Shown here: in pieces, positions 36,988 through 56,858 of the stretch
Layout: each line of letters starts with the position of its first letter
How positions within the stretch are numbered: the stretch's first letter is position 1
Made by a program: the position numbers and the translations under genes
Source: Acidobacteriota bacterium
GTDB lineage: Bacteria; Acidobacteriota; Terriglobia; UBA7540
DNA: 64,000 nt
Assembly: GCA_021817045.1 (NCBI GenBank)
Contig: JAKAWG010000002.1
Span: 37,501-101,500 of the forward strand
Direction: 5' to 3'
Notes under the pieces: generated by a model
What the model was told of the DNA's origin: nothing
Seen by the model: the letters and a program-made list of their open reading frames with translations, nothing else
Databases searched by the model: none

Positions 36988-39516
36988 TCAGGCGATCGCC
37001 TCTTCGGTGATCTTCTTGGTAACATAGGCTTCAATCACGTCGCCTATTTTGACGTCGCTGAAATTTTCCAACGTGACGCCGCATTCCATGCCGGACCGCA
37101 CCTCGGGCACATCTTCTTTGAAGCGCCTGAGCGAGTGTACACGGCCTTCGTAAACCACCACGTTATCGCGCAGCAGGCGTACCTTAGCCTCGCGGGTGAG
37201 TTTGCCGTCCTGAACATAGCATCCAGCCACCGCTCCCACCTTGGCGATATGGAAGGTCTCGCGCACCTCGACGCGGCCGAGCGACGTTTCCTCGTACCTC
37301 GCCTCCAGCAGCCCCGCCTTGGCCTTGCGGATTTCATCCACCAGCTCATAAATAATGGTGTGCAGCCGAATATCCACTTTCTCAAGCGCAGCCAGCTCCG
37401 CCGCCTTTCGCTCCGGCCTGATGTTGAACCCGATAATGACGGCATTTGAAGCCGTGGCCAGCAAGACGTCCGTCTCCGTGACGGCGCCCACGCCGGCGTG
37501 GATAACCTTCACCTTAACGCGTTCGTCGCTGAGCTTGGAAACGGTTTCGGCCACCACCTCGACCGAGCCCTGCACGTCCGCCTTGATGATGACCGGCAAC
37601 TCCTTCACATCGCCGGCGGCAAGTTGCTGGTGCAGGTGGTCGAGCGTCAGACGCGAGCTTTTTGCCAGGGCGGCTTCGCGCGCTTTCGCCTGGCGGTGCA
37701 GGGCGATCTGGTGCGCTTTGGCCGTGTCCTCGATCACCTGGAACTTGTCGCCCGCTTGGGGAACGTCCTCCAGGCCCAGCACTTCCACAGGCGTCGCCGG
37801 CATGGCTTGCGACGTTGGCTCCATCTGGTCGTTCAGCATGGCGCGGACCTTGCCGTAGATCGAACCGACAATGAAGCTGTCGCCCACCCGCAGCGTCCCA
37901 TTCTCAACCAGAACCGTGGCCACCGGGCCGCGTCCGCGATCGAGTTTAGCCTCCAGGACCGTGCCGACACCCGGCCGATTGGGATTCGCCTTAAGGCCTT
38001 GCATATCAGCGACCAGCAAAATCATCTCGAGCAACAGCTCCAGGTTTTTCTTCTGCTTGGCGGAAACCTCCACCGTCACCGTGTCACCGCCCCAGTCTTC
38101 GGGCATCAGGTTCAGGTCAGCCAACTGCCTCTTCACCCGCTCCGGGTTGGCGTCCGGCTTGTCGATCTTGTTGATCGCAACGAGAATGGGCACCTTCGCG
38201 GCACGGGCATGGTTAATCGCTTCGATCGTCTGAGGCATCACGCCGTCGTCGGCGGCCACGACCAGCACAACCACGTCGGTTACCTTCGCGCCGCGTGCGC
38301 GCATCAAGGTAAATGCCTCGTGGCCCGGAGTGTCGAGGAAAACCACCTTGCGCCCGCTCACCGCCACGTGGTAGGCGCCGATATGCTGGGTGATTCCACC
38401 GGCTTCGCGCGCCGTGACGTTGGTTTCGCGGATCGCATCCAGGAGCGAAGTCTTGCCGTGGTCGACATGCCCCATCACCGTGACCACCGGCGGCCGCGCT
38501 CGTAAGTCCTCCGGCTTGTCCACCTCGGCCACTTCCTGCGCGATCTCTTCTTCAAAAGTGATGACGTCAGCTTCCGCTCCGAAATCACGCGCCACTTCCT
38601 GAGCCATCTGGCTGTCGAGCGTTTGATTGATAGTTAAGAGAATGCCCTTTTCAAACAGCCGCTTGATCACGTCTTTGGCGCGGACTTCCAGCTTCTCGGA
38701 AAGTTCCTTGACGCTGATACCCTCCGTGATCGTAATTTTGCGGGTGACGGCGATTTCCTTGGGAACGGGTGCTTGTGGGACCTGTGGCTGTGGACGTGGA
38801 GGCGCAAGTGTCGCCCGTGCGCTGGGACGCTGAGGGGCGAGACGAGCCGCTGCGCCACGCGCCGCGCGCGCGCCAGGAACCGGCGCAGAAGGGCGCGCCG
38901 TCGGGTGCATGGGACGGTGCTCGCCGGGACGCCGCGACGGCGTCGGTCGTGTCGCCACTCCACGAACGCTGGCCACACCCGGATAAATCGGTTGGTTGGA
39001 AGCGGGGCTCTTCTTGAGCGGCGCTCCCCGGGCCGTTTTTCCTGTTGCCGCGGCCGGCGTCGCAGCCGCCGGCTGGCTGGCAGCGGGTGCAACTGCTGGT
39101 CCTGCAGCCACGGCGCGGGGCGGAGAGGGAGAAGTGGCAGGCGGCAGTGGTTTCAATGGGTGCGCGGGCGGAGGTGGCGGAGGAAGCGGCCGAGGCGCAA
39201 CAGCCCTCCGCGCGTCCTCTTTGATCTGGGCGATCGTTCGCGTGATCGGAGCCTGTTCGTGATAATGAATGACCGGCTTCGAGAGCTTAGGAGATTCCGG
39301 TGACACCTCCGGAGGCTGCGCAGGTCCGGCCGGAGTTTCTGCCTCCGTTTGAACCGCCTGGAAATGCTTCCGCACCTGGTCGGCGAGATCGCCCTCAATC
39401 GCGCTTGAGTGCGACTTTTTGTCGGTGTGGCCAAGCTCGTGAAGATAGTCCAGGACGGCCTTGCTCTTCACCTCCAACTCGCGCGCCAGATCGTTGATGC
39501 GAATCTTATCACCCAC
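36988..39516 (-). CDS. infB: Translation initiation factor IF-2
   Basis: An 842-residue GTPase that places initiator tRNA on the small subunit. The N-terminus has an IF2_N motif ([16 protein letters not shown]), then a Pro/Ala-rich linker (about 60-260) and a second IF2_N segment ([16 protein letters not shown]). The G domain has [19 protein letters not shown] and [10 protein letters not shown]. Domains II to IV follow. Start is GTG with GGGAGG nine to ten bases upstream. It lies 148 bases behind nusA. Confidence 0.96.
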
Positions 39517-39664: not shown

Positions 39665-41146
<1,482 letters not shown>

Positions 41147-41215: not shown

Positions 41216-41674
41216 TCAGTTTTCCAACACCAGCCGCGCCTTGGCGATATTAGCCAATTCAATCTCCCGAACCTCTCCGTCCCCCAAGTCCAGCCGGACG
41301 CGCCCGGCTTCAAAACCTGCCAGCCGCCCTTCCATCACCTTGCCGCTTTCAGTCGCCTCTCGCACCACCAAGCGGGCTCGCCGGCCGATAAAGTGCTGGT
41401 AATCGCTCGGCTTCACCAGTTTCCGTTCCAGGCCCGGTGACGAAACTTCCAGCGTGTAAGGCCCCGGAAACAGATCCTCCACGTCAAACAGGGCGCTGAT
41501 CTGCTCGCTGACCAGCGCGCAATCGGCGTGCGAAACGCCCTCCGGCTTGTCAATATAAACGCGGAGAAGCTGGTTGCGACCGCCGCCTTTCAATTCGACG
41601 TCGACCAGCGTCATCCCTTCCGACTCTACCACCCGCTCCGCCAAGCCGCGGATCTTGTCGAGATCAACCGTCAT
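41216..41674 (-). CDS. rimP: Ribosome maturation factor RimP
   Basis: Helps assemble the 30S subunit. From ATG 41674 it is 152 residues: DKIRGLAERVVESEGMTLVDVEL, LLRVYIDKPEGVSHADC, PYTLEVSSPGLERKL and the C-terminal SH3-like part ending KARLVLEN. An in-frame codon at 41788 would extend the protein across the promoter and terminator hairpin, so I reject it. First gene of rimP-nusA-infB-ylxP-cca. Confidence 0.92.
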   Translation of the reverse strand: MTVDLDKIRGLAERVVESEGMTLVDVELKGGGRNQLLRVYIDKPEGVSHADCALVSEQISALFDVEDLFPGPYTLEVSSPGLERKLVKPSDYQHFIGRRARLVVREATESGKVMEGRLAGFEAGRVRLDLGDGEVREIELANIAKARLVLEN

Positions 41675-41738
41675 GACCGTTGGGTGCGTTACCGGCGGCC
41701 GAAACCTGAACTGGTGTCTGACCGGAGCGTGCTTCAAC

Positions 41739-41760
41739 AAAAAAGTGGGCTTTCGCCCAC
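41739..41760 (-). terminator. Promoter-proximal terminator-like hairpin before rimP
   Basis: On the minus strand GTGGGC-GAAA-GCCCAC is followed at once by TTTTTT. It begins only about eight bases after the predicted transcription start and ends about 65 bases before the rimP ATG. A GTGGGC...GCCCAC-T6 hairpin at this site resembles rimP-leader attenuators known from Proteobacteria, which makes an operon-control role more likely than the end of another gene. Confidence 0.75.
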
Positions 41761-41774
41761 TCCTCACCTTCATC

Positions 41775-41803
41775 AGTATATGCCCCAATTACCCCTAGCG
41801 CAA
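41775..41803 (-). promoter_or_regulatory. rimP-nusA-infB promoter
   Basis: On the minus strand TTGCGC (41798-41803), spacer of 17, TATACT (41775-41780). The predicted start is near 41768, immediately before the terminator-like hairpin. Confidence 0.65.
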
Positions 41804-42133
41804 GGCAGCGTTTTCCCTGCGGCCGAATGGTTAAGAGAGCTGACTCGTTTTTTCAGGTCGAGTCGCGCCCGCGGCGAAGGTCTATACGGCACTGCAAAGG
41901 CGGGCCCTGCGCTACAAAAGCTCCCGCAGGCATCCGCGCGGCGGCAGACATCGTTTTTCGATGTCTGCGAGTTTTCCAAGTCGCATACCTGCCAAAAATC
42001 GGCATGTATGCCCACCCAGCGAATACGAGCGAAAAACCGCAGGCTCAAAAGCAGGGACACGCTATCCGCTCGGCGGCCGAGTAGCTCCAACGGCCCGCCC
42101 AACTCCCGCGGGCGCTCGGCAGTCGGCATTTAT
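41804..42133. other. Non-coding DNA upstream of the rimP operon
   Basis: No gene is supported here. A perfect ten-base inverted repeat GCAGACATCG-TTTTT-CGATGTCTGC lies at about 41946-41970. A tRNA-like phrase (GGCCGAATGGTTAAGAGAGC) near 41822 has no matching anticodon or T arm. Confidence 0.4.
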
Positions 42134-43125
42134 TCACGTGTTTCCCTGTTCCACCTGCGAGGCAGCAGACCGTCGCGAGGTCGTGCTTCCCGATTCCGTC
42201 TCCGCCTCATTCTGTCTCTGTCTCAAGTCCATGATCGGTTCGAGTATAAGGAGGTAGAAGAATGGCAACGACGCCGCACCGAACAGCACTTTTTGCGCAG
42301 GTGGTACCGGAAGATAGGGCACCCACCGCCAAGTGAGGACGACAACGTCGGAGCAGATTATAAGTATTCCCCCAAAGATTTCGAGCCGCGCATCGAGCCG
42401 AACGCTGCGAGGCGGCCGGCAGCCCAGACATCGGAACGCGCTACTCTCGAGTGCATAGAGTGATGCCGCGGATTCCTGAGGGTCAGACGGCGCAATCTCT
42501 AGTTCTAGAACGAGATGTTTGATTCTGGCCGCGCGACCTGCCACTGCCAGGCAAAAGCTCAGGAGTATGGAAGACAAATACCAGGGCCATCTCGCTTTTT
42601 CCAGAAACCCAGACCGACAAGGAAGCTCACAATGATCGTCGGCAAGCCAAGCATATTTGGTATTGTTAGCTTCGGTGGGAGACTGTCCCTCAGCGCGACC
42701 GTATCCTCCGCGCACCTTACCAGCGTCGCCTCCTCATTGGCGGAAAACGTCCGGGCGGCGATTTCCGCGCGATAAAGGAGAAGCAGATACTCCAGACGAG
42801 AGCGAATGTGGCGCCTTATTGCCATCGCGCCAAGTTTCGCGAGAGCCGGTCGGCTCGGGCGACGCCCGAGCCACGACCTGCTGCGCCGCGGGGCTAAGCG
42901 TGCGAGTACCTTATTTGAAGGCGGTTGGCCTACCGGCCAAATGTCCAGGGGGTCAAGCATCCAGTAGGCGGTGACAGCGAACATCAGAGGGATGAAAATT
43001 AAGACAACATCCACTTCTGAACCCAAGACCGGGGGCACTCTCGTCGGGATCGTGAGAGATGACAATCTCACGACCATACCTTCAACGAAAAGAATGCCAA
43101 TAAACAGCAGCAAGAGTTGAGCCAA
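42134..43125 (-). pseudogene. Frameshifted multi-pass membrane protein
   Basis: Two overlapping minus-strand frames (43125 to 42559 and 42715 to 42134) look like one membrane protein split by a frame change. The first carries helices LLLLFIGILFVEGMVV, VLIFIPLMFAVTAYW and PTIIVSFLVGLGFW. The second continues with YLSSILLSFCLAVAG, IFGGILIICSDVVVLTW and FFYLLILEPIMDL. The frames cross near 42598 at a run of five A (TGGAAAAAGCG); one extra base would restore a single frame. The family is not recognised. It could be a real mutation or a homopolymer sequencing error. The upstream limit is uncertain: the frame opens with TTG beside an eight-G run. Confidence 0.5.
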
Positions 43126-56582: not shown

Positions 56583-56632
56583 AAGTAGTTGTTGCACGAT
56601 TGCGACGTTGAATCGTGCATTAACTTAAACGG

Positions 56633-56800
56633 ATCCTCGGTAGGCGAGGCGTCCGCGCGACATATAAGCCACTGCCCAGCCAGCATCCAAAGATACCGGC
56701 AGATGGGTAGAACAGGCGCTCCCGGATTAAGGGTTTGCCTAAGGTGGCTGATCTCGTTAGGTGGGATCTCACGGCGCGCGGTGCTGAAGCTTGGGCGAGT
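56633..56800 (+). promoter_or_regulatory. M-box magnesium riboswitch (ykoK leader)
   Basis: The strand carries the conserved M-box blocks in order: GGTAGGCGAGGCGTCC, GCCACTGCCCAGCCAGC, TCCAAAGATACCGGCAGA, TGGGTAGAACAGG, TTAAGG, GGTGGCTGAT, GTTAGGTGGGATC and GGTGCTGAAGCTTGGGCGAG. This follows the Bacillus mgtE leader almost block by block. CTCG near 56635 and CGAG near 56797 close P1. M-boxes sense Mg2+ and usually terminate transcription when it is plentiful. Confidence 0.92.
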
Positions 56801-56858
56801 GGGGATATGCGGTGGTGCACAGGCCGCAACGAAGCCTTTTGTAGTCGGTCCTCAGTAT

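What the first reader, a model, noticed from the sequence alone, without database searches (positions are those of the whole stretch)
41739..41803. Terminator-like hairpin only about 8 bases from the rimP-nusA-infB start site
GTGGGC-GAAA-GCCCAC-T6 lies directly behind a good promoter and before rimP. rimP leader attenuators exist in Proteobacteria, and NusA, encoded in the operon, promotes termination at hairpins. Feedback control by NusA would follow. The extreme closeness to the start site is unusual for an intrinsic terminator.
Basis: partly seen in the sequence, partly recalled or inferred. Interest (0 to 1): 0.55.

Follow-up and report, generated by a model that had tools for sequence, protein, structure and literature searches.

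The report
NusA-operon attenuator hugging its promoter
A short RNA stop signal sits a few bases after the predicted start of the operon for the transcription factor NusA; it belongs to a known kind of switch found in many bacteria, probably lets NusA limit its own production, and sits at the same place near the promoter in nearly all the close relatives examined.

Summary
The hairpin is real. On the minus strand a promoter (TTGCGC-17-TATACT) is followed after 14 nt by GTGGGC-GAAA-GCCCAC-T6-GTTG, then rimP-nusA-infB. It matches the 'rimP-leader' that Naville and Gautheret described in 2010 (GGGc...gCCC stem, U-stretch). Rfam's RF01770 covers only Gammaproteobacteria and does not match here. In the window's class the stem is letter-identical in 49 of 49 leaders with usable upstream DNA. 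A -10 lies within 5-44 nt of it in 48 of 49, with a TTG-type -35 at 16-18 nt spacing in 44 of those 48. The tail is T5-7, purine, TT in 47 of 49. It occurs about once per genome, at rimP (54 of 56 sites). An open scan of public genomes finds rimP behind 89 of 116 testable sites. Closeness to the start is therefore the rule for this leader in the class, not an oddity; termination 31 nt after the start of this operon has been measured in Streptococcus agalactiae. Best reading: an intrinsic attenuator giving an RNA of about 30 nt, set by NusA feedback as shown in B. subtilis. NusA control is inferred here, not tested. New member of a known kind.

The parts
41798..41803 (-). -35 element TTGCGC
   Evidence: sequence; in the class set TTG at 16-18 nt spacing in 44 of the 48 leaders with a -10, offset controls mean 1.5
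41775..41780 (-). -10 element TATACT
   Evidence: sequence; -10 within 5-44 nt of the stem in 48 of 49 class leaders
41768..41768 (-). predicted transcription start (+1), 7 nt after the -10
   Evidence: inference from -10 position only; not measured
41755..41760 (-). 5' arm GTGGGC (one more A-T pair at 41761/41744)
   Evidence: letter-identical in 49 of 49 class leaders
41751..41754 (-). GAAA loop (GNRA type)
   Evidence: GNRA in 43 of 49 class leaders, 6 different GNRA sequences
41745..41750 (-). 3' arm GCCCAC
   Evidence: letter-identical in 49 of 49 class leaders
41739..41744 (-). T6 tract; predicted RNA 3' end near +30
   Evidence: at least 6 T of 8 after the 3' arm in 49 of 49; A-tract before the 5' arm in 0 of 49
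41735..41738 (-). GTTG: purine interruption of the U-tract followed by TT
   Evidence: T5-7, purine, TT in 47 of 49 class leaders; position 7 is G in 42, A in 7, positions 8-9 TT in 49 of 49
41216..41674 (-). rimP (152 aa, ATG 41674)
   Evidence: Pfam RimP_N 6e-24 and DUF150_C
39665..41146 (-). nusA (493 aa; NusA_N, S1, KH, HHH)
   Evidence: Pfam, ORF
36988..39516 (-). infB (842 aa)
   Evidence: Pfam IF-2, IF2_N, GTP_EFTU, ORF

Best explanation
A promoter-proximal member of the rimP-leader family of transcription attenuators. RNA polymerase starts about 8 nt before the stem, makes GTGGGC-GAAA-GCCCAC, pauses on U6 with a purine interruption, and part of the polymerases release an RNA of about 30 nt; the rest read through into rimP-nusA-infB. 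There is no room for a sensor domain, leader peptide or upstream antiterminator, so the switch must be set by something acting on the polymerase or the hairpin itself. Most likely this is NusA: when NusA is plentiful it stimulates hairpin formation and pausing, and less of its own operon is transcribed. Shown here: anatomy, conservation, promoter-like sites, operon, specificity. Shown elsewhere: NusA autoregulation by leader termination in B. subtilis; a +31 termination site in S. agalactiae. Inferred: termination and NusA response in this organism. My probabilities: RNA attenuator of the rimP-leader type 0.92; NusA as the main regulator 0.7.
For: Stem identical in 49 of 49 class leaders, terminator hairpin in 81 of 90 phylum leaders, 73 with a GTGGG arm. 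About one copy per genome, 54 of 56 sites upstream of RimP. Public-genome scan: 89 of 116 testable sites upstream of RimP. RNA rather than DNA element: GNRA loops 43 of 49, one G-U wobble in 16 of 73 phylum stems, changes on both sides such as AAGCGGCC/GGCCGCTT (L067, L071, L097) and GTGAGG/CCTCAC (L051), T-tract on one side only. Promoter at close distance: 48 of 49, median 14 nt from +1 to stem. Full-leader minimum-energy fold keeps the stem in 49 of 49. Literature: PMC2965389 section 7, PMC12288461, PMC4448216, PMC8060035 passages.
Against: No transcription start, 3' end or NusA data for this organism. 9 of 90 phylum leaders show no terminator-like hairpin and 8 of the 81 lack the GTGGG arm (one of these, L089, is probably a chance hairpin). 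With only about 8 nt of RNA before the stem the NusA S1-KH domains have little RNA to hold. The letter-for-letter invariance of the stem is more than a NusA-stimulated terminator should need and stays unexplained. The hairpin (-12.6 kcal/mol for the 7-pair stem) is not obviously weak, while NusA-dependent terminators in B. subtilis tend to be suboptimal (PMC8060035 passages).
Confidence: 0.72

Rival explanations
1. A DNA operator: the palindrome GTGGGC-N4-GCCCAC just after the start site binds a repressor and blocks early elongation.
For: Near-perfect palindrome with invariant arms next to the promoter; PMC2965389 section 17 (passage) notes that terminators and operators can interconvert.
Against: Loop restricted to GNRA in 43 of 49; G-U wobbles tolerated in 16 of 73; T-tract only on the 3' side (49 of 49 against 0 of 49). 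A DNA site needs none of these.
Confidence: 0.05
2. A constitutive, factor-independent attenuator that simply lowers operon output by a fixed fraction, with no feedback.
For: Complete stem and U6 could terminate unaided; no antiterminator is visible.
Against: Deep conservation and single use at the NusA operon; interrupted U-tract of the type reported for NusA- and NusG-dependent terminators (PMC8060035 passages); NusA feedback shown in B. subtilis.
Confidence: 0.15
3. A 5'-terminal stem that protects the mRNA from 5'-end-dependent decay and does not terminate transcription.
For: The stem begins about 8 nt from the predicted 5' end.
Against: The T-tract, purine, TT has no role in this model yet is conserved in 47 of 49; the stem-to-start distance varies (5 to 36 nt).
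Confidence: 0.05

Closest known systems
rimP-leader (Naville and Gautheret 2010, PMC2965389; section 7 read)
   Same: Upstream of rimP-nusA-infB; G-rich 5' arm and C-rich 3' arm with GGGc...gCCC; U-stretch; 64 nt from the T-tract to the start codon (published range 4-130); no antiterminator.
   Different: Acidobacteriota are not discussed as members in the text read; the promoter-hugging position, invariant GTGGGC/GCCCAC, GNRA loop and T6-purine-TT tail are not described there.
Streptococcus agalactiae rimP (gbs0413) leader (PMC4448216, passage read)
   Same: Short and long RNA share one start; termination measured 31 nt after the start at a predicted intrinsic terminator; NusA feedback proposed.
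   Different: Firmicute; I did not compare its hairpin sequence.
B. subtilis nusA autoregulatory attenuator (Mondal 2016, not held; via PMC12288461 passage)
   Same: Terminator in the 5' leader of the nusA operon; no antiterminator (the latter recalled).
   Different: Leader of about 180 nt by the account in PMC2965389, so geometry differs or is unknown; NusA control tested there, not here.
Rfam RF01770 rimP (Gammaproteobacteria rimP leader)
   Same: Same gene, same GGGC-loop-GCCC hairpin next to rimP in E. coli.
   Different: 102-nt structure next to rimP and behind metY in E. coli; no match to the window at E up to 10.

Membership tests
rimP-leader (Naville and Gautheret 2010) | Lies upstream of rimP, first gene of rimP-nusA-infB | tested here: met
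   ORFs and Pfam
rimP-leader (Naville and Gautheret 2010) | Stem with GGGc(...)gCCC, G-rich 5' arm | tested here: met
   GTGGGC/GCCCAC
rimP-leader (Naville and Gautheret 2010) | U-stretch directly after the stem | tested here: met
   T6 41744-41739
rimP-leader (Naville and Gautheret 2010) | 4-130 nt from gene start | tested here: met
   64 nt between the last T (41739) and ATG 41674
rimP-leader (Naville and Gautheret 2010) | No alternative antiterminator | tested here: met
   Full-leader fold keeps the stem in 49 of 49; a further GTGGG between start and RimP domain in 9 of 49, before the stem in 1 of 49; none seen by eye in the window's leader
rimP-leader (Naville and Gautheret 2010) | Termination at the hairpin in vivo | not testable with these tools
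   needs 3'-end mapping
Rfam RF01770 (Gammaproteobacteria rimP leader) | Covariance-model match | tested here: not met
   No match at E up to 10 in 41600-41900; the E. coli leader does match, 102 bits
NusA-autoregulated attenuator (B. subtilis type) | Termination stimulated by NusA | not testable with these tools
   needs in vitro transcription or NusA depletion
NusA-autoregulated attenuator (B. subtilis type) | Distal U-tract interruption | tested here: met
   T6-G-TT; T5-7, purine, TT in 47 of 49; only a tendency of such terminators in PMC8060035
NusA-autoregulated attenuator (B. subtilis type) | Weak hairpin | tested here: inconclusive
   -12.6 kcal/mol for 7 pairs; no comparison set of NusA-dependent terminators

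The most novel reading that the evidence does not exclude
The nusA-operon attenuator is placed, as a conserved rule in several phyla, at about the first point where a nascent RNA can form a terminator (about +30 to +45). It would then read how fast NusA replaces sigma on the polymerase just after promoter escape, and terminated polymerases that keep sigma could return to the adjacent promoter. The invariant GTGGGC/GCCCAC stem would be read by the polymerase-NusA complex itself.
Probability: 0.25. Interest if true: 0.6.

Novelty: new member of a known kind. Interest (0 to 1): 0.35.

Why it matters
[quoted passage not shown] The data here give a clean definition for the window's class (49 of 49), show that the promoter-hugging position recurs beyond it, and supply a minimal system (predicted RNA of about 36 nt at the median) in which NusA-stimulated termination, sigma release and the sequence demand of the stem can be tested without sensor domains or ribosomes.

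Tried and rejected
Rfam: no family at gathering score covers the leader; a permissive search gave only chance hits plus a weak antisense hit to RF02420, which led to the side finding below. tRNA upstream, as metY in E. coli: none in the window. A promoter downstream of the hairpin: -10-like sites there in only 8 of 49. Antiterminator from a second GTGGG copy before the stem: 1 of 49 (L008 by eye), so not general. Control set of other terminators in the DNA held: only 20 found in 1.2 Mb, too few for a firm comparison of tails; 4 of 20 have a -10 within 5-44 nt against 149 of 211 rimP-type sites (those 211 hold duplicate loci and may hold both strands of symmetric sites).

Errors of mine, corrected: one search used a wrong pattern; one search read minus-strand loci unreversed; both replaced. 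One search picked wrong hairpins for L011 and L050; replaced. differ slightly (47 and 48 of 49) because of different background frequencies.

Rows dropped: L037 (contig ends 67 nt before RimP) is the one class leader of 50 not counted; of the 56 kin genomes with a RimP match, leaders of the last few in its table were not cut out. Of the 127 phylum genomes with a RimP match I used 90 leaders: the 30 returned as loci and 60 of the other places picked by hand, leaving out mostly near-duplicates. In one search, 7 of 123 sites have under 500 nt downstream and are not in the 116; the 27 of 116 not at rimP include reverse-strand readings of symmetric sites and unknown contexts that I did not resolve. 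One search used 69 of the phylum leaders (68 distinct) and 88 of the 89 linked public sites, those with 120 nt upstream.

Full report
Observation. The minus strand of the window carries TTGCGC-17 nt-TATACT, 14 nt, then GTGGGC-GAAA-GCCCAC-TTTTTT-GTTG. With a start 7 nt after the -10, 8 nt precede the stem and the T-tract ends at about +30. The pattern is found once in the window and in none of 100 shuffles; the 31-nt RNA folds far better than shuffles. The ready-made promoter and terminator scan lists neither element; the reason I give (G-T extension of the stem, weak -35) is my reading. Downstream are rimP, nusA and infB with clear Pfam matches.

Conservation in the class. RimP was sought in 61 genomes of the window's kin and found in 56; 50 leaders were cut out and 49 have enough upstream DNA. 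All 49 carry GTGGGC/GCCCAC letter for letter. Loops are GNRA in 43 of 49 with six different sequences. After the stem come T5-7, a purine and TT in 47 of 49; columns 8 and 9 are T in all 49. A -10 lies within 5-44 nt of the stem in 48 of 49; in 44 of these 48 a TTG sits 16-18 nt further up, against a mean of 1.5 at two offset control spacings. The predicted RNA before the stem is 14 nt at the median (5 to 36), the predicted terminated RNA about 36 nt; the window, with 8 and about 30, is at the short end. The exact pattern with T4 occurs 56 times in 54 of 61 genomes, 54 of the 56 sites upstream of RimP on the same strand; the two others are one antisense reading of the same palindrome and one unrelated site. 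Its reversed control has no match in any of the 61. Of the genomes with a RimP match only G031 (one T changed) and G036 (RimP fragment) lack it. That the class is Terriglobia (Acidobacteriota) follows from L148, titled 'Terriglobia bacterium isolate JOPF024', whose contig has the same length and leader as that of G024, a member of the window's family.

Phylum and beyond. In 90 phylum leaders, 81 have a terminator hairpin and 73 of these the GTGGG arm. 16 of the 73 contain one G-U wobble, and others have changed both arms (AAGCGGCC/GGCCGCTT, GTGAGG/CCTCAC, GGGGGC/GCCCTC), which speaks for an RNA stem. The -10 is within 5-44 nt of the stem in 50 of 73. Titles shown for 80 of the 119 include, among rimP-linked ones, Acidobacteriota, Alpha-, Beta- and Deltaproteobacteria, Nitrospira, Rokubacteria, Latescibacterota and Solirubrobacterales. 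Among the linked sites a -10 stands within 5-44 nt in 43 of 88, against 10 of 88 at 60-99 nt; for the class and phylum sets the same comparison gives 47 against 5 of 49 and 40 against 9 of 68. So the promoter-hugging position is the rule in the window's class and frequent elsewhere; where no consensus -10 was seen I cannot tell whether the promoter is far or merely different. E. coli is an exception: its GGGC-loop-GCCC hairpin lies next to rimP behind metY and another terminator-like hairpin.

What it is. The features match the rimP-leader of Naville and Gautheret (PMC2965389, section 7 read), who proposed NusA as the regulator. NusA autoregulation through termination in its own leader is reported for B. 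subtilis (PMC12288461, passage; Mondal 2016 itself not held). For S. agalactiae, RNA-seq found a short and a long RNA from one start of the rimP-nusA operon, with termination 31 nt downstream (PMC4448216, passage): the geometry noted here, already measured in a Firmicute. It is not a member of Rfam RF01770, which is gammaproteobacterial.

How it works. The leader has no room for an aptamer, leader peptide or upstream antiterminator, and its full fold keeps the stem in 49 of 49. Control must act on polymerase or hairpin. NusA is the best candidate: encoded in the operon, known to stimulate intrinsic termination, and associated with terminators whose U-tract is interrupted distally (PMC8060035 passages). 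RimP and IF2, the other products, are less likely; no ORF of 80 aa or more was listed inside the 148-nt gap between nusA and infB on that strand that could be a YlxR. NusG could act as well. A DNA operator is disfavoured by GNRA loops, wobbles and the one-sided T-tract (0 of 49 have an A-tract before the 5' arm).

Open points. Nothing here measures transcription. The invariance of the stem letters is unexplained: a terminator needs stability, not this sequence. Whether the early position matters for NusA loading, for sigma release or for polymerase reuse at the promoter (reinitiation after termination is shown for E. coli polymerase in vitro, PMC6978380 passages) is speculation worth testing.

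Print status. The searches, in an open-licence library only, turned up no account that I saw of this leader in Acidobacteriota or of the promoter distance as a general rule; of most listed papers I saw only the listing. [quoted passage not shown]

Noticed in passing
L172:4810-4907 (Caballeronia glebae); window 41738-41814 +: Rfam RF02420 (Bp1_162, 'Burkholderia sRNA Bp1_Cand612_SIPHT') matches the rimP leader on the strand opposite to rimP (82 bits), and weakly the window's plus strand. The family is probably the reverse complement of the betaproteobacterial rimP leader; the source paper used oligo(dT)-primed RT-PCR (PMC3521395 passages), which as I read it does not fix the strand.
   Followed up: partly
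window 56629-56810: M-box (magnesium) riboswitch, RF00380, 112 bits, plus strand.
   Followed up: no
L147, L177, L227: Three sites of the public scan share a similar 5' flank (ATAGGCRAGYARCTTCGA) before GTGGGCGTTGCCCACTTTTTT, without rimP found nearby (L147 and L177 are the same Oscillospiraceae genome): perhaps another leader or terminator family.
   Followed up: no
L008, 16 nt upstream of the stem: A second GTGGGC copy stands before the hairpin, a possible alternative 5' arm; by count the only such case among 49 class leaders.
   Followed up: no
window 42134-43125 -: Two overlapping minus-strand ORFs upstream of the promoter (193 and 188 aa) have no Pfam match.
   Followed up: no
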